From Planctomycetota bacterium (GTDB lineage Bacteria; Planctomycetota; UBA1135), in assembly GCA_004295085.1 (NCBI GenBank), contig SHNF01000009.1, positions 496,001 through 560,000 of the forward strand: a DNA stretch of 64,000 nucleotides. The letters are read 5' to 3'. Positions 26,283 through 56,718 of the stretch are shown piece by piece. The notes beneath the pieces were generated by a model. That model was not told where the DNA came from and searched no databases. It worked only from the letters and a program-made list of their open reading frames with translations. The position numbers were made by a program, and so were the translations under genes. Every line of letters starts with the position of its first letter. Within the stretch, counting starts at the first letter, position 1.

Positions 26283-26376
26283 GTTGCGCCACAGTATGGG
26301 GTGCGCTCGCCGCCACGGCTTCCACCTTTGCGGAAACCTGGAAGCGTCTCCGAGCCCAGGCCCCGGCACGCCGCGT

Positions 26377-29300
26377 TCACGGTTGCGCGTCCAGGTCGGC
26401 GCGCAGGTCCATGGCGCGCTGCGCCCAGGCGTCCGCCGCTGCCGCGGTGGCGGCGGCAGCGCTGGCCCCGGTGAAGATGGCGGCCAGGCGCGAGGACAGC
26501 GGCTTGCGTTCCACGAGGAGCGTGAGCGCGCGCTCCGCGTGCTCGACGGCGCGTTCGGGATGGCCGTCCGCCAGTTCCAGCTCCGCCGCCGTGACCAGGG
26601 CGACGGCCAGGCGCTGGCGATAGCCCGGGGTTTCCGGCGCCGCGGCCAGGCGCGCCTCCTGGGCGGCCAGCGCGCGTGGCACCAGCACGCGCGCGGGCTC
26701 CAGCTCCCCGGCGCCGATGAGCAAGGCCGCGAGCTCGGCGTCGACGTGGCCGCGCAGGCTGGAATAGTCGGCGCGCCTGGCTGTCTCCGGCGGCAGCCCG
26801 TCCAGGGCCGCAGCGGCGCGCTCGTAGGTGACCTGCGCCTCCTGGGTCCGGCCGCCTTCCGCGAACCAGGCACCGAGGGCGACCAGGGTGGTCGCCAGCT
26901 CGCCGGGGAGGTAGGCCATCGCCGGCATCTTCTGGATCAGGGATTCGAAGGCGGCGACCGAGCATTGCAGGGCCGCCTCGGCCTCTTCGCGGCGCCCCAG
27001 CACGCTGCGCGCGCGGCCCAGGCTGCGCCACTGGCGCGCCAGGTAGTAGTGCGTCTCGAGATCCTGCGGCTGCGCGGTGGCCACGCGCTCCAGGATCGCC
27101 ACTGCCGCTGCCAGGGCGGATTCCGCCTCCTGCAGCCGCCCTTGCGCCTCGTGCAGGCGCGCCAGCTCCGCGTGGGCCTGCCCGAGGTTGCTCTGGAACC
27201 TGTGGTTGGCCGGGAAGTCGGCCGCCAGGTCCTGTTGCAGCTCCACGGCGCGCGCCAGCGCCGGCTGCGCCTCGTCGTAGCGGCCGGCGGTGACGAGGAC
27301 CCCACCCAGAAGCCGGCAGGCGTCGCCCAGCTCCAGCCGGGCGCGCGGGAAGTAAGGGAGACGGGCGCTGGCCTCGTCCAGGATCTCGATCGCGCTCCGG
27401 TATGCGTCCGCCGCTTCCGGCCAGCGGCCTTGCAGGCGGTGCGCATCGCCGAGCTTGCTCCAGGCGATGCCGTGGCTGACGTGCAGCACGGGCGGCAGGG
27501 CGCCGGCCTGCGCGTCCTCGAACAAGGCGATGCAGGCGCGGCTGAACTCCTCCGAGGCGGCGCTCCCTTGCTGCGTGAGCCGCAGGGCCGCCAGGCTCAG
27601 GTAGACCTCGGCCAGCACGCCGCGGGCGTCGGCGTCCTCGGGGTCGGCCGCCAGCCGCGGCTGCAGGAGGTCGCGCGCGAGCTGCAGCTGCTGCGCTCCC
27701 GGTTCGACCTGCCCGCGGCTGATCAGCAGCGAGGCATAGGCGGAGTGCGTCCTGGCGAGCTGGGCCACCGAGGCGGGATCCGTGCCCGCCAGCCCGGCGA
27801 GGAGGACGAGCGCGCGGTCGAAGTGGTCCTGCGCCTGCTCCGGATCGCTCTGGTGCACGGCCAGGCCGGCGTGGGCGGCCGCGAGGCGGTTGCTGGCCCA
27901 CGCCTCGCGCCGGGGAAGCCGCTCGAACAGCGCGATGGCTTCCTGGTAGTTGTGGACCGCCGCCGCGCGGTCTCCGAGCGTGACCTGGACCTGCGCGGCC
28001 CGCAGGTGCGCCGCCGCCGTCTGGGCGGACGCTTCCGGGCGCGCGCCCTCCTCCTGCAGGAAGGACAGGTGGAACCCGAGCGCGTCCTCGAGCAGGCGGC
28101 GGCGCACCGGATCCAGCCGTGGATCATGGCTGAGGTCCTCCTGCGCCGCGGCCGTGAGCCGCTCCACCGCCTCCACGGCGGTCCTGTAGCCGGCCTCCGC
28201 GCGCTCGAACTGCGCCTGCACGCGGGCGCGCGCCTGCTGCTGCTGCCATCCGAACGCCAGCGGCCCTCCGATCAGCAGGACGGCGGCCAGCGCGGCGGCC
28301 GCGGCGCGCGGGGGGTTGCGCTGCACCCAGCGCTGGGCGCGCCGCAGCGGACCCGGACGCCGCGCGTTGATCGGCCGGCGCTCGAGCACGTTGCTCAGGT
28401 CCCGGGCCAAGTCGGCGGCGGTCGCGTACCGGCCGGCCGGGTCGTAGTCCATGGCCTTGCCGCACACGGCCTCGGCCTCGCGCGAGATGCCGGGGTGGAT
28501 CCGGCGCAAGGGCTGTGGGCGGCCGGCCAGGATGCGCTGCCGCGTGATCTCCGCCGTCTCGCCCAGGAACGGCGAGCGCTGCGCCAGGAGCTCGTGCAAG
28601 GTCACGCCCAGCGCGTAGACGTCGACCGCGGGGCCGGCCTCGCCGGCGTCGCCGCGCAGCTGCTCGGGGGCCATGTACGGCAGCGAGCCGAGCGGCGAGC
28701 TGGTGCGCGTCAGCTTCTGCGCATCGGCAAGCCCGGCCAGGCCGAAATCGAGCACCAGCAGGCGGCCGGCGGGCGTCACGATCAGGTTGGACGGCTTGAT
28801 GTCGCGGTGCACCACGCCGCGGCGGTGGGCGTGGTCGAGCGCCTCGGCCGCGTCGCGCGCCATCTGCAGGCAGGCGCGCTCCCATGCCGGAGAGAACGTG
28901 GCCTGCTGCGCGCGCCGCTCCGCCAGCAGCTCGGCGAGCGTGCGCCCTTCGATCAGCTCCATGGCGATGTAGCTGATCCCGCCGGCCTCGCCGTATCCAT
29001 AGACCGCGACGATGCCGGGGTGCTGCAGGCGCGCGGCCGCCTCGGCCTCGCGGCGGAAGCGCTCGGCGCTGCCGGGGGAGAACACCTGCTCGGCGCGCAG
29101 GATCTTCAGCGCGACGCGCCGGCGCAGGGACTCCTGTTCGGCCTCGTACACCACGCCCATCCCGCCGCCGCCGAGCCGGCGCAGCAGGCGGAAGTCCCCG
29201 AGCCGCGCGGGCACGTCCAACGCCGGCGCGCCGAGCATGCCCATGGCGCGCAGCGACTCGGTCCGCCGGCGGATCGCGTCCGCCAGCTCCGGGTGGCGGG

Positions 29301-29409
29301 CACAGGCCTCCGCCAGCGCCGCGGCCTCGCCCACCGCGTCGCGCCGTTCCAGGAACTCGGCGACGACGCGGCGGAGCGTGGCACGGGGATCGTCAGGAGC
29401 GGCGCTCAC
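26377..29409 (-). CDS. Transmembrane Ser/Thr protein kinase with TPR repeats
   Basis: 1010 residues from a GTG at 29409. The N-terminal ~65 residues are a helical leader. The kinase domain (about 68-330) has LGGGGMGVVYEAEQ, VALKILR, HRDIKPSN, VLDFGLAG and GSLPYMAPEQ, all catalytic residues present. A transmembrane helix lies near 365-385 (AAAAALAAVLLIGGPLAFGW). The long C-terminal part (about 400-1000) is a superhelix of TPR-like repeats (GDRAAAVHNYQEAIALFERL, LGDAHRLQGRWPEAADAYRS and similar). It probably senses or scaffolds partners outside the membrane. It follows an FG-GAP gene on the same strand with a hairpin between them, so it may have its own promoter. Confidence 0.92.
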   Translation of the reverse strand: MSAAPDDPRATLRRVVAEFLERRDAVGEAAALAEACARHPELADAIRRRTESLRAMGMLGAPALDVPARLGDFRLLRRLGGGGMGVVYEAEQESLRRRVALKILRAEQVFSPGSAERFRREAEAAARLQHPGIVAVYGYGEAGGISYIAMELIEGRTLAELLAERRAQQATFSPAWERACLQMARDAAEALDHAHRRGVVHRDIKPSNLIVTPAGRLLVLDFGLAGLADAQKLTRTSSPLGSLPYMAPEQLRGDAGEAGPAVDVYALGVTLHELLAQRSPFLGETAEITRQRILAGRPQPLRRIHPGISREAEAVCGKAMDYDPAGRYATAADLARDLSNVLERRPINARRPGPLRRAQRWVQRNPPRAAAAALAAVLLIGGPLAFGWQQQQARARVQAQFERAEAGYRTAVEAVERLTAAAQEDLSHDPRLDPVRRRLLEDALGFHLSFLQEEGARPEASAQTAAAHLRAAQVQVTLGDRAAAVHNYQEAIALFERLPRREAWASNRLAAAHAGLAVHQSDPEQAQDHFDRALVLLAGLAGTDPASVAQLARTHSAYASLLISRGQVEPGAQQLQLARDLLQPRLAADPEDADARGVLAEVYLSLAALRLTQQGSAASEEFSRACIALFEDAQAGALPPVLHVSHGIAWSKLGDAHRLQGRWPEAADAYRSAIEILDEASARLPYFPRARLELGDACRLLGGVLVTAGRYDEAQPALARAVELQQDLAADFPANHRFQSNLGQAHAELARLHEAQGRLQEAESALAAAVAILERVATAQPQDLETHYYLARQWRSLGRARSVLGRREEAEAALQCSVAAFESLIQKMPAMAYLPGELATTLVALGAWFAEGGRTQEAQVTYERAAAALDGLPPETARRADYSSLRGHVDAELAALLIGAGELEPARVLVPRALAAQEARLAAAPETPGYRQRLAVALVTAAELELADGHPERAVEHAERALTLLVERKPLSSRLAAIFTGASAAAATAAAADAWAQRAMDLRADLDAQP

Positions 29410-29516
29410 GAGGATTGCAAGGCATCAACCTACAGGATTCCGTGGGCCAGGCGGCGGTGGTGCTGCATGGCCGCTCTCATCGACAGCGACGCTGGAGGGT
29501 TTCCGGAAAGCAGGAC

Positions 29517-29544
29517 GCAGCCGGCGCAGTCGCGCGCCGGCTGC
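29517..29544 (-). terminator. GCAGCCGG-type terminator after FG-GAP gene A
   Basis: Perfect 11-bp stem GCAGCCGGCGC / GCGCCGGCTGC with a 6-nt loop, 20 bp after the stop at 29564; followed on the minus strand by a short CTTT. One of three related hairpins in the FG-GAP array. Confidence 0.6.
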
Positions 29545-29563
29545 TGGATGTAATCCGCACGCC

Positions 29564-31051
29564 TCAGTTGCTCAGGGCGGCTCCGAAAGCGGCCCCTCCC
29601 CCCGGGGTGGCCTGGTGCCAGACGTCATGCCCGGCGCTGCCCGCAGGTCCGTAGAACACCTCCACCTCGCCGGCCTGCTGGGTCGCACCGATGTCTTCGT
29701 TCGGCGTACCAACAGCGAGGTCGTCCTGGCCGTCGCCGTCGAAGTCGCCGGCGGCCAGTGCCGCGCCGAAGCGGTCGTTCTGCCCGACATCGCTGCCGAT
29801 GCCCGGGAGCAGGTTGTATTCGGAGCCGTTCCAGAGCCCGCCAACATGCCCGCGCGCGACTTGCACCGCGCCGGCCAGCACGTTGCCCACGGTCTCGTAC
29901 GGCGAGCCGACGGCCAGGTCGTCGTAGCCGTCGCCGTCGAAGTCGCCGCTGGCCACCGCGAGCCCGGTGCGGTCGCCGGCTTCGGCCACGCCTTGCAGGC
30001 CGCTGCCCTGGATGAGGATCTCGTTGCCGGCGCTGCTGAGGCCGGCGGCGGAGCCGTAGATCACGTTCACCGCGCCGGCGTTGACGACGCCGCTGTCCAG
30101 GTCCTCGGAAGGCGCGCTGGCCGCGAGGTCGTCGTAGGAGTCGCCGTCGAAGTCGCCGGCGGCCAGCGCCGTCCCGAACGCGCCGTAGGCCTCGGCGGAA
30201 TCCAGGATGCCCGGCATGTTCTGGTGCCAGAGCTGCGTGGACCCAGGCTGCAGGCCTTGGCTGGAGCCGTACAGGACCTGCACCAGGCCGGCGTCGATGA
30301 GGCTGCCGACATCCTCGAGCGGCGTGCCGATCGCGATGTCCGCGTAGCCGTCGGCGTTGAAGTGGCCGGCGGCCAGCGCCGAGCCGAAGCCATCCCCCCA
30401 CTCGACCGTCTGCCCGGGCGAGGCCTGGGCCTGGTTCCATACGACGTCGCCGGAGGTGCTCAAGCCGCCGGGGCTGCCGTACATCACGTGCACTCGTCCG
30501 GCGTCGATCTCCCCGTACACCGTGGCTCCCGGCATGCCGATGACCAGGTCGTCGTAGCCGCCGGCGGCGCCATTGAAGTTGCCGGCTGCCAGGGATGCGC
30601 CGTAATGGGCGCTGTATCCCAGGTCTCCCGCCATGCCGGGATCGTCGAGCCGCAGCAGCTGGTCGCCGGTGGCGCTCAGCCCGTTTGCGGAGCCGTACAG
30701 GACGTGCACGATTCCCGCAAGGATGTATTCATCCACCGTCTCGTTGGGCACGCCGATGGCGAGGTCGTCGTAGTCGTCGCCGTTGAAATCGCCCCAGGCC
30801 AGGGCCGCTCCGAAGTTGTCGTTCTGCTCGGCGACGCCCTGGATTCCCGGGACGTCCTGGTGCCAGTAGTCCGCGCCGGCGGCCGTGAGGCCGCTCGCGC
30901 TGCCGTACAGCACCGTCACCGAGCCGGCCCACTGCACGCCGTCCACGGTATCGTCAGGAGCGCCGATCGCGAGGTCGGCGTAGCCGTCGTTGTTGAAGTC
31001 CTGCGCCTCCGGGGCTGCGAACAGGGGTAAGAAGAGGAGGATGTTGTGCAT
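29564..31051 (-). CDS. Secreted FG-GAP beta-propeller protein A
   Basis: 495 residues. A very short signal peptide with no Lys or Arg (MHNILLFLPLFAAPEAQ) precedes DFNNDGYADLAIGAP, the first FG-GAP/integrin-alpha-type repeat. About seven repeats follow, each with a Ca-binding loop such as DFNGDDYDDLAIG, DFDGDGYDDLAVG or DFDGDGQDDLAVG and a strand like 'AG.V.VLYGSA.GL...G...W.QD.PGI', consistent with a seven-bladed propeller. It is probably secreted or surface-exposed and binds ligands or other proteins in a calcium-dependent way; the ligand is unknown. First of five paralogues that share an upstream element and signal-peptide style. Confidence 0.9.
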   Translation of the reverse strand: MHNILLFLPLFAAPEAQDFNNDGYADLAIGAPDDTVDGVQWAGSVTVLYGSASGLTAAGADYWHQDVPGIQGVAEQNDNFGAALAWGDFNGDDYDDLAIGVPNETVDEYILAGIVHVLYGSANGLSATGDQLLRLDDPGMAGDLGYSAHYGASLAAGNFNGAAGGYDDLVIGMPGATVYGEIDAGRVHVMYGSPGGLSTSGDVVWNQAQASPGQTVEWGDGFGSALAAGHFNADGYADIAIGTPLEDVGSLIDAGLVQVLYGSSQGLQPGSTQLWHQNMPGILDSAEAYGAFGTALAAGDFDGDSYDDLAASAPSEDLDSGVVNAGAVNVIYGSAAGLSSAGNEILIQGSGLQGVAEAGDRTGLAVASGDFDGDGYDDLAVGSPYETVGNVLAGAVQVARGHVGGLWNGSEYNLLPGIGSDVGQNDRFGAALAAGDFDGDGQDDLAVGTPNEDIGATQQAGEVEVFYGPAGSAGHDVWHQATPGGGAAFGAALSN

Positions 31052-31060
31052 GGACAGTCT

Positions 31061-31086
31061 GATCGACGCGCGCCGGCCATCGTCAC
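31061..31086 (-). promoter_or_regulatory. Shared two-box element upstream of FG-GAP gene A
   Basis: Minus strand reads GTGAC, 13 nt, CGTCGATC, then 9 nt to the ATG. It matches the same layout at four other FG-GAP genes. Box positions suit an ECF-type -35/-10 with a leaderless start, though 13 nt is shorter than the usual AAC-to-CGT spacing. Confidence 0.55.
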
Positions 31087-31143
31087 GCGATTCTTCCGTC
31101 GGGCCGGCCGGGCGCTATCTTGGGCAGCTCCAGCCTGAGAAGC

Positions 31144-31647
31144 ATGGACGGCAGCACCCTCCAGCGCGCGGACGCCGGCGATCCGGCCGCGGCCGCCGCC
31201 CTTCTGGCGCAGCACCTGACCGGGCTGCACGCCTTTGTCCGCCTGCGCATGGGTCCGCCGCTGCGCCGGCGCGAGGACAGCGGCGACCTGGTGCAGTCGG
31301 TGTGCGCCGAGATCCTGGGCAACCTGAGCCGCTACCAGCACCCGGGCGAGCGCCAGTTCCGCCAGTGGCTGTTCAAGACCGCCGAACGCAAGATCGCGGA
31401 CCACTGGAAGCACCAGCAGCGCCTCAAGCGGGACCCGGCGCGCGAGGAGCTGGAGCGCGCCGAGGCCGCCTTCGACAAGCTGGCGGAGGACGAGCGCGAG
31501 GTGATCCTGCTCGCGAACGTGGTCGGGCTGAGCCGGGCCGAGATCGCGGCCCAGCTCGGCAAGAGCGAAGGCGCGGTGCGGACCATGCTGTCCCGCGCGC
31601 TGTCGCATCTGGCCGAGCTGGTCGAAGAGAGCGGAGAGCAGGCCTAG
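31144..31647 (+). CDS. ECF sigma factor, copy 1
   Basis: 167 residues from the ATG at 31144; an earlier ATG at 31120 would add 8. Region 2 is DLVQSVCAEILGNLSRYQ and QFRQWLFKTAERKIADHW; region 4 is EDEREVILLANVVGLSRAE and IAAQLGKSEGAVRTMLSRAL. The linker between them is only a few residues: compared with copy 2 at 33215, a 29-codon stretch is missing, otherwise the two are almost identical over their full length. The last bases CTAG form the stop of this gene and, on the other strand, of FG-GAP gene B. It is divergent from FG-GAP gene A, 92 bp apart. Confidence 0.9.
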   Translation: MDGSTLQRADAGDPAAAAALLAQHLTGLHAFVRLRMGPPLRRREDSGDLVQSVCAEILGNLSRYQHPGERQFRQWLFKTAERKIADHWKHQQRLKRDPAREELERAEAAFDKLAEDEREVILLANVVGLSRAEIAAQLGKSEGAVRTMLSRALSHLAELVEESGEQA

Positions 31648-33170
31648 CGGCCCAGCGACCAGCCGAAGAAGTCGCCGTGCTCCGACAGGTCCGGGATGCC
31701 GGCCACGTTCTGGTGCCAGTAGTCCGAGCTGGCCGACGGGATGCCGGCGTAGAACACGTGCACGACGCCCATCGCCGCGTAGGCCGTTCCCGGGTACGCG
31801 CCGAGGTACTCGCCGGGCGCGCCGATCGCCAGGTCGTCGTAGCCCGAGTCGTTGAAGTCGCCGACGGCCAGGGCCTGGCCGAACATGTCGAAGACCTCGG
31901 AAGTCTCCTGGACCGTGTCGTCCTGCGTCCAGTACGACTTCTCGAAGTTGGACAGCCCGTCGACGCTGCCCATGAACACGTGCACGGCGCCATGCAGGTC
32001 GTAGAACTCACCCGAGCCTTCGCCCGGCACGCCGATGGCGAGGTCCGCGTAGGCGTCGCCGTCGAAGTTGCCGGCCGCGAGCGCGGCGCCGAACTGGTCC
32101 TGCGACTCGGCGACGTCGTACACGCCGGGCACGTCCTCGTGCCAGTACTCGTCGTCGGCCACCCCCAGGCCGGCGGGCAGCCCGTAGAGCACGTGGACAG
32201 CGCCCGGGCTGGCGCTGCCGGCAATGAAGTCGTAGGGCACGCCGATGGCCAGGTCGTCGCGCCCATTGCCGTCGAAGTCGCCGGCGGCCAGCGCCGCGCC
32301 GAACTTCTCGATGTTGGTCGGGGCGCTGTCGATCCCGGGCACGTCCTGGTGCCAGAAGCTGGCGCCCACGCTGGTGAGCCCGACGATGCTGCTGCTGTAC
32401 ACGACGTGCACCGCGCCGGCGCTCGATCCAGCGCCGACGTCGGTGCCTGGAGCGCCGATCGCCAAGTCGGCGTGGCCGTTGCCGTCGAAGTCGGCCATCA
32501 CCAGGGTGCTGCCGAAGCCGGCGCCGGACTGGGCCGCCTGCCCGAACGTGGCGCGGCTCCACTTGCTGCTGTCCAGCGGCTGCAGGCCGGCAGCCGAGCC
32601 GGCGAGCACCCAGACACTGCCCACGTAGCCGGCTCCGCCCCAGTCCGCTCCCGGGATGCCGATCGCCAGCTCGTCGCAGCCATCCTCGTCGACGTCACCG
32701 GCGGCCAGCGCGGCGCCGAACTTGGCCATGCTCTGCAGCGCGCCCGGGGCCCCAGGGGTCTTCTGGGTCAGGTACTCCTGTCCGGTGGTGGTCAGGCCCA
32801 GCGCTCCGCCATAGAAGACTTGCACCAGGCCGGCTTCCGCCAGGCCGGCGATCGCCTCGCGCGGGCTGCCCACCGCCAGGTCGTCGAAGCCGTCGCCGTC
32901 GAAGTCGCCGTGCTGGAGCGCGAGGCCGAAGGAGTCGTTCTGCTCGGCCATGTCCCTGACCCCGGCGCTGTTCTGGCACAGGAACTGCGCGCCAGCGCTG
33001 CCGAGGCCGGACGGGCCGCCATACAGCACCTGGACCGCGCCGGACGCGGCAGCCCCGGAGATGTTCTCGCCGAAGACGCCGACCGCCAGGTCGGAGTATC
33101 CGTCGCCGTTGAAGTCCTGCGCCGACGGGGCGGCGAGCAGGGAGGGGAGCAGGAGGAGGAGCTCGTTCAT
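31644..33170 (-). CDS. Secreted FG-GAP beta-propeller protein B
   Basis: 508 residues: short Lys/Arg-free signal (MNELLLLLPSLLAAPSAQ), then DFNGDGYSDLAVGVF and about seven FG-GAP repeats (DFDGDGFDDLAVG, DVDEDGCDELAIG, DFDGNGHADLAIG, DFDGNGRDDLAIG, NFDGDAYADLAIG, DFNDSGYDDLAIG). The protein ends EHGDFFGWSLGR with part of a last blade closing on the first. Same probable role as protein A. Its stop shares the CTAG at 31644-31647 with the sigma gene converging on it. Confidence 0.9.
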   Translation of the reverse strand: MNELLLLLPSLLAAPSAQDFNGDGYSDLAVGVFGENISGAAASGAVQVLYGGPSGLGSAGAQFLCQNSAGVRDMAEQNDSFGLALQHGDFDGDGFDDLAVGSPREAIAGLAEAGLVQVFYGGALGLTTTGQEYLTQKTPGAPGALQSMAKFGAALAAGDVDEDGCDELAIGIPGADWGGAGYVGSVWVLAGSAAGLQPLDSSKWSRATFGQAAQSGAGFGSTLVMADFDGNGHADLAIGAPGTDVGAGSSAGAVHVVYSSSIVGLTSVGASFWHQDVPGIDSAPTNIEKFGAALAAGDFDGNGRDDLAIGVPYDFIAGSASPGAVHVLYGLPAGLGVADDEYWHEDVPGVYDVAESQDQFGAALAAGNFDGDAYADLAIGVPGEGSGEFYDLHGAVHVFMGSVDGLSNFEKSYWTQDDTVQETSEVFDMFGQALAVGDFNDSGYDDLAIGAPGEYLGAYPGTAYAAMGVVHVFYAGIPSASSDYWHQNVAGIPDLSEHGDFFGWSLGR

Positions 33171-33178
33171 GTCCCCCG

Positions 33179-33204
33179 GATCGCCGCCGCGGCGTCGGCG
33201 TTAC
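33179..33204 (-). promoter_or_regulatory. Shared two-box element upstream of FG-GAP gene B
   Basis: Minus strand reads GTAAC, 13 nt, CGGCGATC, then 8 nt to the ATG at 33170. One base differs from the CGTCGATC form in the other copies. Confidence 0.5.
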
Positions 33205-33214
33205 CGTATTTCTC

Positions 33215-33817
33215 GTGGCCGGCAGCCTCGTCGACCGTGCCGACGCCGGCGACCCGGCCGCGGCCGCCGCCCTTCTGGCGCAGCACCTGACCGGGCTGCA
33301 CGCCTTCATCCGCCTGCGCATGGGTCCGCCGCTGCGGCGGCGCGAGGACAGCGGCGACCTGGTGCAGTCGGTGTGCGCCGAGATCCTGGGCAACCTGAGC
33401 CGCTACCAGCACCCGGGCGAGCGCCAGTTCCGCCAGTGGCTGTTCAGGACCGCCGAGCGCAAGATCGCCGACCACTGGAAGCACCAGCGGCGCCTCAAGC
33501 GCGACCCGGCGCGCGAGGTGCGCCTCGCGGACTCGGAAGGGGGCCATGACCTGCAGCTCCTGGCGCAGTACCGCTCCTTCTGCTCGCCCAGCGGGCGCGT
33601 CGCGGCCCGGGAGGAGCTGGAGCGCGCCGAGGCCGGCTTCGACAAGCTGGCGGAGGACGAGCGCGAGGTGATCCTGCTCGCGAACGTGGTCGGGCTGAGC
33701 CGGGCCGAGATCGCGACCCAGCTCGGCAAGAGCGAGGGCGCGGTGCGGACCATGCTGTCCCGCGCGCTCTCGCATCTGGCCGAGCTGGTAGATGAGCCTT
33801 CTGGCGGTGCTGGCTAG
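33215..33817 (+). CDS. ECF sigma factor, copy 2
   Basis: 200 residues from a GTG at 33215. Sequence is nearly identical to copy 1 (31144) from RADAGDPAAAAALLAQHLTG onward, in DNA as well as protein, but it keeps a 29-residue linker (VRLADSEGGHDLQLLAQYRS, FCSPSGRVA) between regions 2 and 4. That linker length is normal for ECF factors, so copy 2 looks like the parental form. It ends in the CTAG shared with FG-GAP gene C. Divergent from FG-GAP gene B with 44 bp between the starts, so its promoter overlaps the two-box element there. Confidence 0.92.
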   Translation: MAGSLVDRADAGDPAAAAALLAQHLTGLHAFIRLRMGPPLRRREDSGDLVQSVCAEILGNLSRYQHPGERQFRQWLFRTAERKIADHWKHQRRLKRDPAREVRLADSEGGHDLQLLAQYRSFCSPSGRVAAREELERAEAGFDKLAEDEREVILLANVVGLSRAEIATQLGKSEGAVRTMLSRALSHLAELVDEPSGGAG

Positions 33818-35307
33818 CGCCCCAGCCCCATGCCGAAGTTGTCGTAGGATCCGTACTGGTACCAGAGCTGGTAGCCGCCGGTCGCCGGCGGGCCGTAGAA
33901 CACCTCCACGGAACCGTTGTTTGTGTAGCCGGCCACGTCTTCGAACATGGTCCCGACCACCACGTCGTCCAGGCCGTCGCCGTTGTAGTCGCCGATGCCC
34001 AGGGACCAGCCGAAGTAGTCGCCGCTCTCCGCCGCGCTGGCGGTGAACGGCAGGCCCTGCTGGAGGGTCAGACCGGAGCCGCCGAGCCCACCGGGGGCGC
34101 CGTAGGCCACCATCGCCTTGCCTGCAGAGTTCTTGCCGCTGATCGTTTCCAGCGGGCTGCCGATCACCACGTCGCCGTAGCCGTCGCCGTTGAAGTCGCC
34201 GGCGATCATGGAGGAGCTCCAGTAGCCGGTGTAGTCGCCCGTGGCCGCGGAGCCGGGCAGGCCGCTGCCCTGGTACAGGAACTCGTTGCCGGCCGCGTCG
34301 AGGCCGCCGGCCATGCCGTAGATGACCTGCATTCCGCCGGCATTGGTGAGGCCGTTGAAGTCCTCGAGCGGCACGCTGATCGCCAGATCGTCGATGAAGT
34401 CGTCGTCGAAGTCGCCCACGGCGACCGCGCGGCCGAAGCCGTCGCCGGCTTCGGCGATGCCGGAAATGCCGCCGATGTCCTGGTGCCAGATCTCGGCGCT
34501 GGCGCTGCTCAGGCCGGAGGCGGAGCCGTACACCACGTGCACGGTGCCGGCGGCGTTGATGTTCCCGATGTCCTCGCCCGGGACGCCGATGGCCAGGTCG
34601 TCGTAGGGGTCGGCGTTGAACTGCCCGCTGGCCAGCGCGAACCCGAACTCGTCGTACGCCTCGACCAGCTGTCCCGCCCCCGCTGCCGCCTGGTTCCAGA
34701 GCACGTCGTCGGTGGTGCGCAGGCCGTTGGGACTGCCGTACAGGATGTGCACCTGGCCGGCGTTGGTCTTGCCGTTCACGTCGCTGTCCGGCATGCCGAC
34801 CGCGAGGTCGTCGCGACCATCGGCGTTGAAGTCCCCGGACGCGAGCACGCTGCCGTAGAAGTCGCCGGCCTGGCTGTTGCCGGCCACGCCCGGAGCATTC
34901 AGGAAGTACAGGGCGTCGTCGAGTCCGGTGAGTCCGCCTGGAGACCCGTAGAGCACCTGCACCACTCCGGCGTTCGCCAGCCCGTCGACCGTGGTGCCGG
35001 GAACCCCGATGGCGAGGTCATCGAAGCCGTCGCCGTCGAAGTCGCCGTGGGCCAGGGCGCGGCCGAAGTTCTCATTCGTCGCCGCGCCGCCCTCGATGCC
35101 GGGCACGTTCTGGTGGTAGGCGAAGCTGCCGGCAGTGCTCAGCCAGTCGCCGTTGCTGTACAGCACGACCACCGAGCCGGCGCCGGACAAGCCGCTGACA
35201 GTCTCCCCCGGAGTGCCGATCGCGAGGTCGTCGTAGCCGTCGCCGTTGAAGTCCTGCGGTGCCGGAGCGGCCAGCAGGGTGGGCAAGAGGAGGAGGATGT
35301 GGTGCAT
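33814..35307 (-). CDS. Secreted FG-GAP beta-propeller protein C
   Basis: 497 residues from the ATG at 35307 (MHHILLLLPTLLAAPAPQ); a TTG at 35340 would add MRRPCRVDPDA but would lie inside the shared upstream element, so it is rejected. Repeats include DFNGDGYDDLAIGTP, DFDGDGFDDLAIG, DFNADGRDDLAVG, QFNADPYDDLAIG, DFDDDFIDDLAIS, DFNGDGYGDVVIG and DYNGDGLDDVVVG: seven Ca-binding blades. C-terminus GYQLWYQYGSYDNFGMGLGR. Secreted surface protein of unknown ligand, paralogue of A, B, D and E. Confidence 0.9.
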   Translation of the reverse strand: MHHILLLLPTLLAAPAPQDFNGDGYDDLAIGTPGETVSGLSGAGSVVVLYSNGDWLSTAGSFAYHQNVPGIEGGAATNENFGRALAHGDFDGDGFDDLAIGVPGTTVDGLANAGVVQVLYGSPGGLTGLDDALYFLNAPGVAGNSQAGDFYGSVLASGDFNADGRDDLAVGMPDSDVNGKTNAGQVHILYGSPNGLRTTDDVLWNQAAAGAGQLVEAYDEFGFALASGQFNADPYDDLAIGVPGEDIGNINAAGTVHVVYGSASGLSSASAEIWHQDIGGISGIAEAGDGFGRAVAVGDFDDDFIDDLAISVPLEDFNGLTNAGGMQVIYGMAGGLDAAGNEFLYQGSGLPGSAATGDYTGYWSSSMIAGDFNGDGYGDVVIGSPLETISGKNSAGKAMVAYGAPGGLGGSGLTLQQGLPFTASAAESGDYFGWSLGIGDYNGDGLDDVVVGTMFEDVAGYTNNGSVEVFYGPPATGGYQLWYQYGSYDNFGMGLGR

Positions 35308-35315
35308 GGCATCCG

Positions 35316-35341
35316 GATCGACGCGGCAGGGCCGGCGCAAC
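35316..35341 (-). promoter_or_regulatory. Shared two-box element upstream of FG-GAP gene C
   Basis: Minus strand reads GTTGC, 13 nt, CGTCGATC, then 8 nt to the ATG at 35307. The first box is the most divergent of the five. Confidence 0.45.
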
Positions 35342-35351
35342 AGAAAACGCG

Positions 35352-35379
35352 ACGCAGCCGGCCCCCAGGCCGGCTGCGT
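35352..35379 (-). terminator. GCAGCCGG-type terminator after FG-GAP gene D
   Basis: Perfect 12-bp stem ACGCAGCCGGCC / GGCCGGCTGCGT with a 4-nt loop, followed on the minus strand by CGCGTTTTC. Good Rho-independent terminator 27 bp after the stop at 35406, directly upstream of gene C's promoter element. Confidence 0.8.
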
Positions 35380-35405
35380 GCGCCCGCGGAGCGGGAAGGT
35401 CTCGT

Positions 35406-36902
35406 TCAGCGGCTAAGGGCCGCGCCGAAGCGGTCGAGCTCCTCCGCAGAGCTGGCGATGCCGGGGCTGTTCTGGTGCAGGTACTCGGAGCCGCCCGAGG
35501 CGAAGCCGGCATAGAGCACGTGCACGACGCCGACGTTGTGGATGTTGAAGTCCTCGCCGCTCGCGCCCACCACGAGGTCGTCCAGCCCCGAGGCGTTGTA
35601 GTCGCCGACCGTGAGCGCGCTGCCGAAGACGTCGCCCTGTTCGCGCACCTGGGCCACGGTGTCGTCCTGGGTCCAGAAACGCTGGCCGGCGCTGGACAGG
35701 CCGTTCGCGCCGCCCATCAGGATGTGCACGGCGCCGACGCTGGTGCTGGCGCCGTCGAACTCGCCCGGAACGCCGATGGCGAGGTCGCCATAACCGTCGC
35801 CGTCGAAGTCCCCGATCGCGAGCGTTTCGCCGAAGCTGTTGTGCGTCTGCGCGACCTCGCTCACGCCGGCGGAGTCCTGGTGCCAGCGCTGGTCGCCCGT
35901 GGCGCTCAGTCCGAGTGCGCCGCCGTAGAGCACGTTGACCGCTCCGGCCCAGTCCTTGCCGTTCACCTCGTCCTCGGGCACGCCGATGGCGAGGTCGCAG
36001 AAGCCGTCGCCGTCCAGGTCGCCGGCGGCCAGGGACTCGCCGAAGAAGTCGTAGCTCCAGGCGGAGCCCTCGACGCCGGCCACGTCCTGGTGCCAGAGGT
36101 CGTCGCCGGCCGCGCTCAGTCCGGCGAGGCCGCCGTACAGGACGTGCACCGCTCCGGCTTCGAAATGGAGTCCCACGTTCGCGCCGCTGGCGCCGATCGC
36201 CAGGTCCGCGAAGCCGTCGCCGTCGAAGTCGCCCATGACCAGGGCGCCGCCGAACAGCGCGTCCTGCTGGTCGGGGAAGCCGAGGCTGCCGCGCGTCCAC
36301 AGGCTGCTGGCCTGGGGGTTCAGGCCACTGATCGTGCCCTCGAGCACGACCACGCGGCCGCTGTTATTCTCGCTGCCGAGGTCCGCCATCGGGACGCCGA
36401 TGGCCAGCTCGTCGTCACCGTCGCCGTCGACGTCGCCGGCCGCGAGCGTCAGGCCGAACTCCCCGCCGTACTCCGGGGCCAGGTTCAGGCCGTAGGTGCT
36501 CGGCGTGAGCGCCTGCTGGCCCAGGGTCGTGATCCCGGCCGCGCTGCCGTAAAAGACCTGCACCATGCCGGTGTTGGGGGAGACGCCGTTCTCGAACGGC
36601 ACGCCCACGGCCAGGTCGTCGAAGCCGTCGCCGTTGAAGTCGCCGTGGACCAGCACCTTGCCGAACTGGTCGCCTGCCTCGGTCGCGTCCGCGATGCCTG
36701 CGGAGCCCTGGTACAGGTACTGCGAGCCGGTCCCGTCGATGCCCCAGAGGCCGCCGTAGAGCACGTGGACTGCCCCGGCCGAGCCCGCCCCGCCGACGGT
36801 CTCGCCGGGGACGCCGATCGCGAGGTCCGGGTAGCCGTCGCCGTTGAAGTCCTGCGGTGCCGGAGCGGCCAGGAGAGGTAAGAAGAGGAGGATGTGCTGC
36901 AT
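35406..36902 (-). CDS. Secreted FG-GAP beta-propeller protein D
   Basis: 498 residues: signal MQHILLFLPLLAAPAPQ, then DFNGDGYPDLAIGVP and repeats DFNGDGFDDLAVG, DVDGDGDDELAIG, DFDGDGFADLAIG, DLDGDGFCDLAIG, DFDGDGYGDLAIG and DYNASGLDDLVVG. Structure and inferred role as in the other paralogues. Similarity to gene E is high in repeat order, including the WTQDDTVAQV segment near the C-terminus (WTQDDT also in B and E), suggesting B, D and E are a closer subgroup than A and C. Confidence 0.9.
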   Translation of the reverse strand: MQHILLFLPLLAAPAPQDFNGDGYPDLAIGVPGETVGGAGSAGAVHVLYGGLWGIDGTGSQYLYQGSAGIADATEAGDQFGKVLVHGDFNGDGFDDLAVGVPFENGVSPNTGMVQVFYGSAAGITTLGQQALTPSTYGLNLAPEYGGEFGLTLAAGDVDGDGDDELAIGVPMADLGSENNSGRVVVLEGTISGLNPQASSLWTRGSLGFPDQQDALFGGALVMGDFDGDGFADLAIGASGANVGLHFEAGAVHVLYGGLAGLSAAGDDLWHQDVAGVEGSAWSYDFFGESLAAGDLDGDGFCDLAIGVPEDEVNGKDWAGAVNVLYGGALGLSATGDQRWHQDSAGVSEVAQTHNSFGETLAIGDFDGDGYGDLAIGVPGEFDGASTSVGAVHILMGGANGLSSAGQRFWTQDDTVAQVREQGDVFGSALTVGDYNASGLDDLVVGASGEDFNIHNVGVVHVLYAGFASGGSEYLHQNSPGIASSAEELDRFGAALSR

Positions 36903-36911
36903 GCCCTCCCA

Positions 36912-36937
36912 GATCGACGTGCCCGGCGCGGCGTCAC
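36912..36937 (-). promoter_or_regulatory. Shared two-box element upstream of FG-GAP gene D
   Basis: Minus strand reads GTGAC, 13 nt, CGTCGATC, then 9 nt to the ATG at 36902. Confidence 0.55.
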
Positions 36938-36949
36938 TCGAAAACGAGG

Positions 36950-36979
36950 CGCAGCCGGCGCCCTCCGACGCCGGCTGCG
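36950..36979 (-). terminator. GCAGCCGG-type terminator after FG-GAP gene E
   Basis: Perfect 11-bp stem CGCAGCCGGCG / CGCCGGCTGCG with an 8-nt loop, followed on the minus strand by CCTCGTTTTCG. It lies 19 bp past the stop at 36999 and immediately before gene D's promoter element. Confidence 0.78.
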
Positions 36980-36998
36980 GGCAGAAGCTCGCGGCCGC

Positions 36999-38498
36999 TC
37001 AGCGGAGCAGGCTCGATCCGAAGGAGTCGTAGGGCTCGGTCGTGTCGGCGAGCCCCGCGGTGTCCTGGTACAGGTAGTCGGCGCCGGTCGCCGAGCCGCC
37101 GTAGAACACGTGCACGATGCCCACGGAGACCGCGCTGCCCCAGCTCTCGCCGGGCGCCCCGATGACCAGGTCGTCGTAACCCGAGGCGTTGTAGTCGCCG
37201 ACCGCCAGGCTGGCGCCGAAGCGGTCGTACTCCTCCGGGGACGAGGCGGTCGTGTCGTCCTGGGTCCAGAACACTTCGTTCAACCCTGACAGGCCCGTGG
37301 CGTCGCCGTAGAAGACGTGTACCGCGCCGGTGTACACGAGCGCGCCGAAGTACTCGCCCGACACGCCCACCGCCAGGTCCTCGGCGCCGTCGCCGTCGAA
37401 GTCGGCGATGGCGATGGCCGCGCCGAAGCGCTCGTCGGCGAGGGCGTTGCTCTCGACGTTCGCCACGTCCTGGTGCAGGATCTGGTTGCCGCCCGAGCCG
37501 AGGCCGAGGATGCTGCCGTAGAACACGTTCACGGCGCCGGCGGCGGCCTCGCTGCCGACGTCCTCGTACTGCACGCCGACCGCGAGGTCGTCCACGTCAT
37601 CGCCGTCCAGGTCGCCCGCGGCCAGGGCGCCGCCGAAGCGGTCGCCCGCCTCCAGCGCGCCCTCCACGCCGGCGACCCCCTGATGCCAGAGGTCGGTGTT
37701 GGCGCTGGACAGGCCGCTGGCCGTGCCGTACATCACCTGCACCAGGCCGGCGTTGAGCGATCCCGAGACCGTCGCCTCCGGCGCGCCGATGGCCAGGTCT
37801 GCATAGCCGTCGTCGTCGAAGTCCCCGGACGCCAGCGCGGCGCCGAAGTTGTCGTTCGCCCCGGCGGTGGCGCCGAGCTCGTTGCGGTTCCACAGCTCGC
37901 CGTTGACCACGTCGAGCCCGGTGACGGAACCGGGCAGCACGCACACCCGGCCGGCGTTGCTCGCGCTCTGGACGTCGAAGTACGGCGCGCCGACCGCGAG
38001 GTCGGCGAAGCCGTCGCCGTCGAAGTCGCCCGCGGCCAGCGACCAGCCGAAGCGCTCGCCGTTCTGGGGCGTGCCGGGCATGCCGGGCGTGTCCAGGGTG
38101 AGCTTCTGCTGGCCGAGGTGGGTCAGCCCGGCGCCGGTGCCGAAGAACACCTGCACCATGCCGGCGTCGATCGCGCCGCCGAAGTCCTCGGAGGGCGCGC
38201 TCACGGCCAGGTCGTCGTAGCCGTCGCCGTTGAAGTCGCCGTATGCGAGCGCCTGGCCGAACTGGTCCAGCGAGTCCGCGGCCTCCTTGACGCCGGGGGC
38301 GTCCTGGTGCAGGTACTGCGAGCCGGCGGTACCGACGCCGGCCCCGGAGCCGTACAGGACGTGGACGACCCCGGCGCCCGAGATCGCGCCGAGGTCCTCG
38401 GCCTGCACCCCGATCGCCAGGTCCGCGAAGCCGTCGCCGTCGAAGTCCTGGGCCGCCGGGGCTGCCAGGAGGGAAAAGAGGAGGAAGGAGTGATGCAT
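36999..38498 (-). CDS. Secreted FG-GAP beta-propeller protein E
   Basis: 499 residues from the ATG at 38498 (MHHSFLLFSLLAAPAAQ, no Lys or Arg); a GTG three codons upstream is possible. Repeats: DFDGDGFADLAIGVQ, DFNGDGYDDLAVS, DFDGDGFADLAVG, DFDDDGYADLAIG, DLDGDDVDDLAVG, DFDGDGAEDLAVG, DYNASGYDDLVIG. Seven blades with calcium loops. First gene transcribed in the D/E tail of the array and upstream of the SIR2-like gene's end. Ligand unknown. Confidence 0.9.
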   Translation of the reverse strand: MHHSFLLFSLLAAPAAQDFDGDGFADLAIGVQAEDLGAISGAGVVHVLYGSGAGVGTAGSQYLHQDAPGVKEAADSLDQFGQALAYGDFNGDGYDDLAVSAPSEDFGGAIDAGMVQVFFGTGAGLTHLGQQKLTLDTPGMPGTPQNGERFGWSLAAGDFDGDGFADLAVGAPYFDVQSASNAGRVCVLPGSVTGLDVVNGELWNRNELGATAGANDNFGAALASGDFDDDGYADLAIGAPEATVSGSLNAGLVQVMYGTASGLSSANTDLWHQGVAGVEGALEAGDRFGGALAAGDLDGDDVDDLAVGVQYEDVGSEAAAGAVNVFYGSILGLGSGGNQILHQDVANVESNALADERFGAAIAIADFDGDGAEDLAVGVSGEYFGALVYTGAVHVFYGDATGLSGLNEVFWTQDDTTASSPEEYDRFGASLAVGDYNASGYDDLVIGAPGESWGSAVSVGIVHVFYGGSATGADYLYQDTAGLADTTEPYDSFGSSLLR

Positions 38499-38506
38499 GG
38501 CACCCA

Positions 38507-38532
38507 CATCGACGGGCGCAGGGCGGCGTTAC
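38507..38532 (-). promoter_or_regulatory. Shared two-box element upstream of FG-GAP gene E
   Basis: Minus strand reads GTAAC, 13 nt, CGTCGATG, then 8 nt to the ATG at 38498. Confidence 0.55.
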
Positions 38533-38552
38533 GGGCTTACTGCACCGGGCGC

Positions 38553-39755
38553 TCAGACGTGCGCGGCGGCCAGGCGCGTCGCGATGGCCTCGCGGAGGTC
38601 CGCGCCGGCCCGCGTGAAGTCGCAGGCCAGGAAATTGCGCTGTTCGTCCATGCCCGGGCCGAGGACGCTGCGATAGTTGGCGAGCAGCTCCGGGCTCAGA
38701 TGCTTGTTCACCACCAGGCAGCGCAGCCGCCGGCGCGCGTGGCTCTGAATGGCCGCGCGCAAGGCCGCGCGAGTCAGGTAGTCGTCGATGGGCAGCGAAT
38801 AACCCAGGAAGACGAACTCGTGGGCCTCGCGGCACGCGCGGATGACGTCCTGCCAGATCAGCTTCTGCTCCAGGAACTGATACTGCTTGGCGAAGGTCGG
38901 CGGCGTGATGACCGGCGGGCACACCAGCGTGTACGCGCGCCGGTGCTCGAGATCCACGGGGAAGCCGATCTCTTCGTAGGCGAGAACGCGGCGCTGAAAG
39001 CGCGGAACCCGGCTGTCTCCCGAGGCGATGAAGTACGTCGAGGCGTTGCCGATGCCCTTGGCCACGTCGTACCAGCCCACGGAGCCGTGCGGCTTCAGCA
39101 CCAGGAAGGCGGGCGGCCCCCACGGCGTCCGGTAGGTGTAGTGCACCTCCGCGCCACTGTGATGCTCCATGCTGAGGAAGTAATCCACTTCCTCGTCCCA
39201 GTTGAAGCTGACCACCGCGTCGCGGTCGGGCGCCAGGCCTTCGAGCACGGAGCGCACCCCGCGCGGCAGGCGCCGGTTTTTCTGGCAGCGCTCGGTGAAC
39301 ACGGTGCGCACCACCGCCGCGACGTCATCGAACACCTGCGCCACGCCGTGGCCGCCCGAAGTGGAGAGCTGCACGAGCTCCCGCTCCTCGTGCCCTTCCT
39401 CGCCCACCAGCTCCGGCATCTGCGCCAGCATGTGGGCGATGGAGAAGAACTCGGTGACGCTGAGCTCCTCCAGGGAGTCGCGGTCGCAGGCACAGTACTT
39501 GTCCAGCACCAGGTCGATGGAGCGCAGGATCCGCTGCGGCTGCATGTAGCGGTCGCGCAGACGCTGCCCGCGCTTGCGGGTGGCGCGCCGGGCCGCGCGC
39601 CGCTCCAGGTACTCGATCACCAGCGGGACCAGCTCCCCGCCGAGCGGGTACTTCATGCCGGCGGAGAACCCGGCTCCGAACAGGAACACACGCGGGAAGA
39701 GGCTCTTGGATCCGGAGGCGGAAGTCACGGGCATGCAGGACGGTGACTGGCTCAT
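38553..39755 (-). CDS. SIR2-like domain protein
   Basis: 400 residues; start at 39755 or at the Met seven residues later. The N-terminus VFLFGAGFSAGMKYPLGGEL is the NAD-binding GAGxS motif of SIR2-like proteins. Later motifs agree: AVVSFNWDEEVDYFLS (position of 'T.NYD.LIE'), LVLKPHGSVGW (the 'KLHGS' strand), and FVFLGYSLPIDDYLTRAALR ('GYS..D'). It lacks the zinc cysteines of true sirtuins. Such proteins are common as NADase effectors of antiphage systems but also occur with other roles. No partner (TIR, Argonaute, HerA) is adjacent, so the function is open. It sits just upstream of the FG-GAP array on the same strand with its own start region. Confidence 0.8.
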   Translation of the reverse strand: MSQSPSCMPVTSASGSKSLFPRVFLFGAGFSAGMKYPLGGELVPLVIEYLERRAARRATRKRGQRLRDRYMQPQRILRSIDLVLDKYCACDRDSLEELSVTEFFSIAHMLAQMPELVGEEGHEERELVQLSTSGGHGVAQVFDDVAAVVRTVFTERCQKNRRLPRGVRSVLEGLAPDRDAVVSFNWDEEVDYFLSMEHHSGAEVHYTYRTPWGPPAFLVLKPHGSVGWYDVAKGIGNASTYFIASGDSRVPRFQRRVLAYEEIGFPVDLEHRRAYTLVCPPVITPPTFAKQYQFLEQKLIWQDVIRACREAHEFVFLGYSLPIDDYLTRAALRAAIQSHARRRLRCLVVNKHLSPELLANYRSVLGPGMDEQRNFLACDFTRAGADLREAIATRLAAAHV

Positions 39756-53464: not shown

Positions 53465-54082
53465 GTGCCCGACGAGTCCGGCGAGCTCGTGACGCGCGCT
53501 TCCGCGGGAGACAGCTCCGTCCTGCCGGAGCTGGTGCGCCGCTATCTGCCCGGCCTGCGCCGCTACGTCCGGCATCACGCCGGCGGCCTGATTTTGCGCC
53601 GCGAGGCGAGCGAGGACCTGGTCCAGTCGGCCTGCCGGGAGATGCTGGAGCGGCTCGCGGACGAGCGCTACCAGTTCCAGGGCGAGGCGCAGTTCCGCCA
53701 GTGGCTGTACCAGGCCGCGCTGTTCAAGATCCAGGACCGCCGGCGCTATCACGGCGCGCAGCGGCGCGACCCGGACCGCGAGGCCCGGCGCCCCCAGCTC
53801 AGCTCCGCGGAGGCGCTCAGCTCGGTCCTGTTCCACGACGCCGGCACGCCGAGCGAGGCGGCGGCGCGCCGGGAACGCATCGTTCGCCTGCAGGCGGCGC
53901 TCGAGCAGCTGCCGGAAAGGTACCGGACCGTCCTCGATCTCGCTTACCGCGACGAGCTCCCGCACGAGGAGATCGCCGCGCGCCTCGACATCACACCCCA
54001 GAACTCGCGCGTGCTGCTGTCCCGCGCCCTGTCGCGCCTGGCACGGCTGGGCGTGGAACAAGAGGAAGGAGGCCCGGACTGA
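53465..54082 (+). CDS. ECF sigma factor
   Basis: 205 residues from a GTG at 53465. Region 2: LVRRYLPGLRRYVRHHAG, SEDLVQSACREMLERLAD, AQFRQWLYQAALFKIQDRRR. Linker of about 45 residues. Region 4: LQAALEQLPERYRTVLDLAY and HEEIAARLDITPQNSRVLLS. Same DLVQS-type group as the copies at 31144 and 33215 but clearly divergent. Paired head-to-head with the kinase-TPR gene. Its stop lies in the loop of a hairpin (54068-54096). Confidence 0.9.
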   Translation: MPDESGELVTRASAGDSSVLPELVRRYLPGLRRYVRHHAGGLILRREASEDLVQSACREMLERLADERYQFQGEAQFRQWLYQAALFKIQDRRRYHGAQRRDPDREARRPQLSSAEALSSVLFHDAGTPSEAAARRERIVRLQAALEQLPERYRTVLDLAYRDELPHEEIAARLDITPQNSRVLLSRALSRLARLGVEQEEGGPD

Positions 54083-55992: not shown

Positions 55993-56718
55993 ATGACTTT
56001 GCCGCGCGAAGACCCCCGCGTCCCTGACCCGAAGGAAGCAGTCGCCGGCGCGCTGCGCTTCGCCCGCGAGCGGCTGGGCCCGGCCAGCGAGGCCGTCCTC
56101 GCGGACACAGGGATCCAGGCCCTGGTCCTGTCGCGGATGCGCCAGGACCGGGATCTGGAGGACGCCGTGCTCGGCGAGGTCCATCGCGCGGCCGCGCACA
56201 ACGGCAAGGTGGCCGACGAGTTCCTCGCCTACTTCCTCTCCGACATGACGCGGCTCGGCCACCAGCGCGTTTCGACCGGCCTGCGCCGCTTCCTCGACAC
56301 CGGAGACCTGGTCCAGTCCGTCCTCGGCGACCTCTGGGAGGGCTTCGAGAGGCTCCACTTCGAGACCCGCGGGCAGTTCCTGGCCTACCTGGCGCAGGCT
56401 CTGCGCTGGAAGAGTTCCGGCCACGGCCAGCACCTGGCGGCGGGCAATCGCCGGGAGGACCTGCGCGTGGAACAGGCAGCCGAGAACCTGCAGGCACCGG
56501 CGGTGGGCCAGTCGCCTTCCTCGCAGGCCGGCGCGGCGGAGGAGCGGGAACGCCTGGCGCTGGTCCTGGTGCGCCTGCCGGATCGCGATCGCGACTTGTT
56601 GCGCGGCTTTCTCAAGGGCGAGAGCAACGAGGAGATCGGCGCCCGCCTCGGCCTGACGCCGGACGCGGCGCGCATGGGCGTCCAGCGCGCCATCGAACGG
56701 GCCCGACAGCTCTTATGA
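55993..56718 (+). CDS. ECF sigma factor, long-linker form
   Basis: 241 residues from the ATG at 55993. A 60-residue N-terminal helical extension precedes region 2 (LAYFLSDMTRLGHQRVSTGL, TGDLVQSVLGDLWEGFERL, RGQFLAYLAQALRWKSSGHG) and a region 4 (LALVLVRLPDRDRDLLRGFL, NEEIGARLGLTPDAARMGVQ). The promoter-reading helix is intact. Divergent from the BNR gene with 133 bp between them, and not next to a kinase, so its controller is not evident. Confidence 0.85.
   Translation: MTLPREDPRVPDPKEAVAGALRFARERLGPASEAVLADTGIQALVLSRMRQDRDLEDAVLGEVHRAAAHNGKVADEFLAYFLSDMTRLGHQRVSTGLRRFLDTGDLVQSVLGDLWEGFERLHFETRGQFLAYLAQALRWKSSGHGQHLAAGNRREDLRVEQAAENLQAPAVGQSPSSQAGAAEERERLALVLVRLPDRDRDLLRGFLKGESNEEIGARLGLTPDAARMGVQRAIERARQLL

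What the first reader, a model, noticed from the sequence alone, without database searches (positions are those of the whole stretch)
31144..33817. Two almost identical ECF sigma genes, one missing a 29-codon linker
The copies match nearly base for base outside the missing segment, while the flanking FG-GAP genes differ much more. That points to recent duplication or gene conversion. The missing linker between regions 2 and 4 leaves both DNA-reading domains but changes their distance, so copy 1 may read a different spacing or be a dominant-negative form.
Basis: seen in the sequence. Interest (0 to 1): 0.6.

Follow-up and report, generated by a model that had tools for sequence, protein, structure and literature searches.

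The report
Gene twin lost its sigma-factor linker
A bacterium carries two nearly identical gene-switch (sigma factor) genes side by side, and one has lost the piece that joins its two DNA-reading halves, which probably stops it from starting transcription by itself and makes it either a dying copy or a natural blocker of its twin.

Summary
The two ECF sigma genes (31144-31647, 33215-33817, both +) are 96.5% identical over codons 9-162; copy 1 lacks 96 bp, i.e. 32 codons rather than 29. Flanking FG-GAP genes are 43-54% identical in amino acids. Divergence rises abruptly inside both ORF ends, and the convergent FG-GAP partners belong to different clades, so gene conversion between older tandem paralogues fits better than a recent block duplication. 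The gap is a deletion: the region 2-4 connector, measured between fixed anchors, is 13 residues in copy 1 and 35-53 in 45 others; the ends carry a 12/16 imperfect repeat ending in GAGG. No other linker-less relative showed in 154 genomes of the order or 392 drawn from the phylum. AlphaFold2 leaves 3 non-helical residues between the domains (30 in copy 2). Published sigma-H and sigma-L work shows that this linker threads RNA polymerase and that deleting it abolishes transcription, so 'reads a different spacing' is unlikely. I favour a recent loss-of-function deletion in copy 1, with copy 2 the working, probably kinase-linked sigma. A dominant-negative decoy stays open: the copy 1 lineage shows no polarised amino-acid change outside the gap. 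Raw reads were not available.

The parts
31144..31647 (+). Copy 1: ECF sigma gene, 167 aa, without the region 2-4 linker
   Evidence: ORF and Pfam domains; global alignment with copy 2. A TTG start at 31120 (175 aa) is also possible.
33215..33817 (+). Copy 2: ECF sigma gene, 200 aa, with normal linker
   Evidence: ORF and Pfam domains.
33515..33610 (+). 96 bp (codons 101-132) of copy 2 absent from copy 1; holds most of the linker with the conserved (S/T)PS motif
   Evidence: Alignment; linker present in all 45 other aligned sequences.
31443..31444 (.). Deletion junction in copy 1
   Evidence: Alignment.
33503..33518 (+). Left half of an imperfect direct repeat (12 of 16 identical) at the deletion end, ending in GAGG
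   Evidence: 34 of 12,888 position pairs at offset 96 in window 26001-39000 reach 12/16.
33599..33614 (+). Right half of the same imperfect direct repeat
31168..31629 (+). Homogenised tract in copy 1 (codons 9-162)
   Evidence: 16 differences in 462 bp against 20 in 39 bp at the ends, Fisher p about 1e-15.
33239..33796 (+). Homogenised tract in copy 2 (codons 9-194, with the 96 bp inside)
29564..31051 (-). F1, exported-looking FG-GAP repeat protein, divergent from copy 1
   Evidence: PF01839; clade F1+F3, support 99/98.
31644..33170 (-). F2, FG-GAP gene convergent with copy 1 (stops overlap in CTAG) and divergent from copy 2
   Evidence: clade F2+F4+F5, support 100/99.
33814..35340 (-). F3, FG-GAP gene convergent with copy 2 (stops overlap in CTAG)
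35406..36902 (-). F4, FG-GAP gene
36999..38507 (-). F5, FG-GAP gene
26377..29409 (-). Ser/Thr protein kinase with TPR repeats; likely partner kinase of the sigma genes (inferred from linkage)
   Evidence: PF00069 E 2e-43; related kinases beside other ECF genes.

Best explanation
Two older tandem ECF sigma paralogues inside an FG-GAP gene array were homogenised by gene conversion over codons 9-162 (inferred from sequence). Copy 1 then lost 96 bp by slippage or microhomology deletion between imperfect repeats ending in GAGG (the deletion is shown, its order and mechanism inferred). Sigma2 and sigma4 of copy 1 still fold (predicted), but with about 3 non-helical residues between them they cannot occupy their two sites on RNA polymerase at once and there is no sigma3.2-like segment for the active-site cleft; copy 1 therefore should not initiate transcription (inferred from published sigma-H and sigma-L work). 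The most likely reading is a young loss-of-function allele in a duplicated gene, with copy 2 the working sigma. Copy 2 is probably licensed by a Ser/Thr kinase, since the DAED motif of region 2 reads DSGD and related kinases sit beside many of its relatives (inferred).
For: Core identity 446/462 with four-fold sites 81/87 identical. Sharp edges inside the ORFs, while codons 1-8 keep paralogue-level similarity (16/24 bases), as expected when an older resident gene is overwritten. F2 and F3 fall in different FG-GAP clades. Connector 13 residues in copy 1 against 35-53 in 45 other sequences. In 154 genomes of the order, 1 of 67 matches (copy 1 itself) aligns across the junction in one piece; in 392 genomes of the phylum, 1 of 39, the most doubtful one being checked and having a full linker. 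Imperfect repeat at the gap ends. AlphaFold2: helices 69-94 and 98-111 in copy 1; 69-96 and 127-143 in copy 2. Sigma-H linker deletion abolishes transcription (PMC6411747); the sigma-L connector of 20 residues is fully extended (PMC6372665).
Against: The frame of copy 1 is intact, and none of the six differences polarised to its lineage changes an amino acid (neutral expectation 0.61-0.74 nonsynonymous; P of 0 in 6 = 0.0003-0.004; if both unpolarised nonsynonymous sites are put on copy 1, P = 0.006-0.045). So copy 1 was under purifying selection for most of the time since homogenisation; either the deletion is very young or the short form is kept. The polarisation rests mainly on L002, at 62% amino-acid identity, and codons 41, 81, 109 and 142 are weak or contradictory. 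Unwinding the first sigma4 helix would lengthen the connector to about 17 residues, near sigma-L's 20.
Confidence: 0.58

Rival explanations
1. Copy 1 is a maintained decoy (dominant-negative): its intact sigma2 (and sigma4) binds core RNA polymerase, the kinase or promoter DNA without initiating, damping copy 2.
For: Both domains are intact and recognised, the sigma4 part superposes on solved sigma4 domains at about 0.8-1.6 A; no polarised nonsynonymous change on the copy 1 lineage; deletion in frame and leaving a clean Asp-Pro start to the sigma4 helix.
Against: A random deletion is in frame one time in three; no second example in the genomes searched, so no sign of long conservation; no expression data.
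Confidence: 0.22
2. Assembly or strain artefact: the deletion is an error or a minor variant in the assembly (18 contigs, 90% complete).
For: A near-identical repeat pair is a usual place for misassembly; reads not available.
Against: Copies differ at 16 sites across the core and have unique flanks, so collapse would not give a clean in-frame 96-bp gap at a repeat.
Confidence: 0.08
3. Copy 1 is an active sigma factor with altered promoter spacing.
For: Both DNA-binding domains are present; linker length varies among ECFs (35-53 here).
Against: Sigma positions are set by RNA polymerase; sigma-H linker deletion or replacement by a disordered sequence abolishes transcription and off-spacing promoters are weak (PMC6411747); copy 1's model leaves 3 residues against 20 in sigma-L.
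Confidence: 0.04
4. Origin rival (concerns only how the pair arose): recent duplicative insertion of one sigma gene between two FG-GAP genes, rather than gene conversion between older tandem copies.
For: Only the sigma genes are near-identical; intergenic regions show no similarity above shuffles (303 of 1000 reach the score).
Against: Codons 1-8 are homologous but diverged (16/24), and both genes have the same 4-bp stop overlap with a convergent FG-GAP gene, which an insertion would have to recreate.
Confidence: 0.2

Closest known systems
ECF (group IV) sigma factors with a sigma2-sigma4 linker, e.g. M. tuberculosis sigma-H and sigma-L, E. coli sigma-E, CnrH
   Same: Same two domains; copy 2 models as a compact sigma2/sigma4 pair close to CnrH (4cxf_A, TM 0.73 by target, rmsd 4.3 A).
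   Different: Copy 1 lacks the linker that these use to thread RNA polymerase; it superposes as a whole on none of them (all 24 matches at E <= 0.001 have rmsd 12.7 A or more).
Kinase-licensed ECF sigma factors (EcfP/PknT of Vibrio parahaemolyticus, EcfK/PknS of Xanthomonas citri; original groups ECF43, 59, 60), from the review PMC8103513
   Same: Kinase genes beside many relatives (23 of 47 loci have a match within the stretch held); DAED replaced (DSGD here, often SxSD in relatives).
   Different: Here an FG-GAP gene lies between kinase and sigma; DSGD keeps two Asp; phosphorylation untested.
NCBIfam TIGR02984, Planctomycetaceae-specific sigma-70 subfamily 1
   Same: Best curated family by E-value for both copies.
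   Different: 109.7 and 91.1 bits against a cut-off of 183.75: not members by the curated rule.
Engineered sigma-H with sigma3.2 deleted (PMC6411747, Fig. 2d legend and text)
   Same: What copy 1 resembles most: sigma2 and sigma4 without the linker function.
   Different: There man-made and supplied as two separate domains or with a disordered linker; here natural and fused by about three residues.

Membership tests
ECF (group IV) sigma factors | Sigma70 region 2 and region 4 domains, no region 3 | tested here: met
   Both copies, above Pfam gathering scores.
ECF (group IV) sigma factors | A sigma2-sigma4 linker that can thread the polymerase (under 50 residues; 20 in sigma-L) | tested here: not met
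   Copy 1: 13 residues between anchors, 3 non-helical. Copy 2 meets it: 45 between anchors, 30 outside the domain helices.
ECF (group IV) sigma factors | Directs promoter-specific transcription | not testable with these tools
   Needs in vitro transcription.
TIGR02984 | Score at or above the curated cut-off of 183.75 bits | tested here: not met
   109.7 (copy 2), 91.1 (copy 1).
Ser/Thr-kinase-regulated ECFs | Kinase gene next to the sigma gene | tested here: inconclusive
   Kinase 26377-29409 is one gene away from copy 1; the C7 and C4 paralogues have kinase, FG-GAP gene, sigma in a row.
Ser/Thr-kinase-regulated ECFs | DAED motif of region 2 lost, with a phosphorylatable Ser or Thr | tested here: inconclusive
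   DSGD in both copies; the second place is Ser or Thr in 23 of 46 sequences, the last Asp is invariant.
Ser/Thr-kinase-regulated ECFs | Phosphorylation restores polymerase binding | not testable with these tools
   Needs biochemistry.
Gene-converted paralogue pair | Tract of near-identity with edges inside otherwise diverged homologues | tested here: met
   16/462 differences in the tract against 20/39 at the ends.

The most novel reading that the evidence does not exclude
Copy 1 is a selected, natural 'linker-less' sigma: a decoy made from the sigma gene itself, occupying polymerase or the partner kinase through sigma2 and so restraining copy 2.
Probability: 0.2. Interest if true: 0.65.

Novelty: new variant of a known kind. 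Interest (0 to 1): 0.32.

Why it matters
The sigma2-sigma4 linker of ECF factors has been shown essential in vitro for sigma-H. Here nature made the deletion beside an otherwise near-identical intact twin, so the pair is a ready matched test of what the linker does and of whether sigma fragments can act as decoys in genomes that hold dozens of ECFs. If copy 1 is only a young null allele, it still shows gene conversion and slippage at work in an ECF / FG-GAP / kinase module that recurs in this genome.

Tried and rejected
Recent tandem duplication of a sigma + FG-GAP unit: rejected because F2 and F3 are the least similar FG-GAP pair in amino acids (42.6%) and fall in different clades. Insertion of the linker into copy 2: rejected because 44 relatives and paralogues besides copy 2 have it. 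Selection on protein alone as cause of the similarity: rejected by four-fold sites. A possible second short form, G375 (match 6-124 of copy 1): fetched and found to have a full linker, as have three further checked genes (G365, G345, G172). A shared promoter element upstream of the two sigma genes: none above shuffles. Named relatives: the only genome-contig scan returned two distant loci (25% identity), of no use. Literature: the search for 'ecf sigma' with 'fg-gap' found 0 papers; the searches for linker length and for short linker with dominant negative listed none whose title or shown abstract start describes a naturally linker-less ECF; only listings were read there. A search for gene conversion in bacterial duplicates was listed only and not used.

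Limits: no orthologues of the pair were found in the order at E <= 1e-50 with copy 1 as query, so the deletion could not be dated by comparison between species; the 'order' search held 154 genomes and the phylum search 392 drawn from a larger group. score local matches at E <= 1e-22 and only the best-ranked candidates per genome (up to 23 and 9), so distant short-linker ECFs could be missed. Rows dropped before the linker count: L001, L003, L007 (the copies themselves), L016 (region 4 only), five own-genome matches without a locus, the matches without a locus, and L049-L050 (distant). Linker lengths of the most distant paralogues (L010-L020) rest on a weak alignment.

Full report
What is there. 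Two sigma genes on the + strand lie in an array of five minus-strand FG-GAP genes: kinase (26377-29409, -), F1 (-), copy 1 (31144-31647, +), F2 (-), copy 2 (33215-33817, +), F3, F4, F5 (-). Each sigma gene diverges from the FG-GAP gene before it and shares a CTAG with the stop of the one after it. Both have Pfam sigma region 2 and region 4 above gathering scores. The best NCBIfam model is TIGR02984, but below its cut-off.

The gap. Global alignment gives one internal gap of 96 bp (32 codons), not 29 codons. The ends show an imperfect direct repeat, 12 of 16 identical and ending in GAGG; 34 of 12,888 position pairs at the same distance in the surrounding 13 kb reach that. That suits a slippage or microhomology deletion. 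In an alignment of 46 sequences (the two copies, 16 paralogues of this genome, 28 from other genomes of the family and order) the distance between a fixed anchor at the end of region 2 and one in region 4 is 13 residues in copy 1 and 35-53 in the other 45. The linker is thus ancestral and copy 1 derived. The missing part carries a (T/S)PS motif whose Pro and Ser are nearly invariant (90% or more) in the 20-sequence alignment.

How rare it is. With copy 1 as query, 67 matches at E <= 1e-22 were found in 44 of 154 genomes of the order; only copy 1 itself aligned in one piece through the junction. In 392 genomes drawn from the phylum there were 39 matches in 20 genomes, again only copy 1. One match that ran past the junction (G375, to residue 124) was fetched and has a full linker, as have three others checked.

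Origin. Codons 9-162 differ at 16 of 462 bases (10 synonymous codons, 6 nonsynonymous), while the end codons differ at 20 of 39 (Fisher p about 1e-15). Four-fold sites match at 81/87 against 0.47 by composition, so this is shared recent ancestry and not protein constraint. FG-GAP pairs have 0.55-0.66 at such sites. In a tree F1 groups with F3 (99/98) and F2 with F4 and F5 (100/99), so the FG-GAP partners of the two sigma genes are not a recent pair. Codons 1-8 keep paralogue-level likeness (16/24). Together this favours gene conversion between two older tandem sigma genes over recent unit duplication or insertion. The 3' flanks do show likeness above shuffles (0 of 300 reach it), which I read as ordinary FG-GAP family likeness at the C-terminus. 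The deletion most simply came after the conversion, since the tract is near-identical on both sides of the gap; this order is inferred.

Selection. Polarised against paralogues (chiefly L002), six differences fall on copy 1's lineage, all synonymous (codons 9, 13, 31, 81, 85, 96; 81 is weak); on copy 2's lineage fall four nonsynonymous ones (V32I, Q92R, A141G, A168T) and two to four synonymous ones; two nonsynonymous ones stay open (polarised by reading the table). Under neutrality 61-74% of changes should be nonsynonymous, giving P = 0.0003-0.004 for 0 of 6, or 0.006-0.045 if both open ones belong to copy 1. Copy 1 has therefore not been a free-drifting pseudogene for most of the time since homogenisation. 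This does not tell whether the short form itself is selected.

Structure and mechanism. AlphaFold2 on 20-sequence alignments: copy 1, mean pLDDT 85.3 and pTM 0.50, helices 69-94 and 98-111 at the junction, so 3 residues between domains; copy 2, pLDDT 81.7 and pTM 0.75, helices 69-96 and 127-143, with 30 residues between. Foldseek: copy 2 matches CnrH as a whole (TM 0.73 by target, rmsd 4.3 A); copy 1 matches solved sigma4 domains at 0.8-1.6 A (3hug chains A, C, E, G, K) but no whole sigma. The low pTM means that the domain arrangement of copy 1 is not known. In published complexes the linker enters the active-site cleft and leaves by the RNA exit channel. Deleting it or replacing it with a disordered sequence abolished sigma-H transcription, and spacer changes weakened promoters (PMC6411747, passages read). 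Sigma-L bridges with 20 residues, fully extended (PMC6372665, passages and section 7 read). With 3 free residues, or about 17 if the first sigma4 helix unwound, copy 1 should not reach both sites. So I expect no initiation by copy 1 and judge altered spacing improbable. Whether it blocks copy 2 is open.

Setting. The C7 and C4 paralogues of this genome each sit in a row kinase, FG-GAP gene, sigma, the last two convergent; at C6 a sigma, a kinase and an FG-GAP array are neighbours. The genome has 69 matching stretches to F3 at E <= 1e-10. Of 47 loci scanned, 23 have a kinase match and 3 an FG-GAP match. The DAED motif of region 2 reads DSGD in both copies and is often SxSD in relatives; the review PMC8103513 (passages read) describes ECFs with altered DAED that are switched on by kinase phosphorylation. 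That this holds here is inference.

Verdict. A real and well-defined natural linker deletion in one of two gene-converted ECF sigma genes. Most likely a young loss-of-function allele, with a natural decoy as the interesting alternative. Moderate interest because it is a single, undated case without expression data or reads.

Noticed in passing
window 53477-54073 (+) and 56179-56715 (+): Two further ECF sigma genes in the same window, the first with a kinase gene beside it (L008), the second with an FG-GAP gene beside it (L015).
   Followed up: partly
L051 3795-9511, L052 4414-9736, L053 7976-18003: The kinase / FG-GAP / ECF sigma grouping recurs at three other places of this genome; a search for papers holding both 'ecf sigma' and 'fg-gap' found 0.
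   Followed up: partly
window 29564-38507: The five FG-GAP genes form two clades in mixed order (F1, F3 and F2, F4, F5), a sign of repeated block duplication or rearrangement in the array.
   Followed up: partly
window 35770-36158: A 210-bp period repeat, 1.9 copies, 76% matches, inside F4.
   Followed up: no
window 29012-31030 (+) and others: Very long ORFs antisense to the kinase and FG-GAP genes, best read as by-products of about 70% G+C.
   Followed up: no
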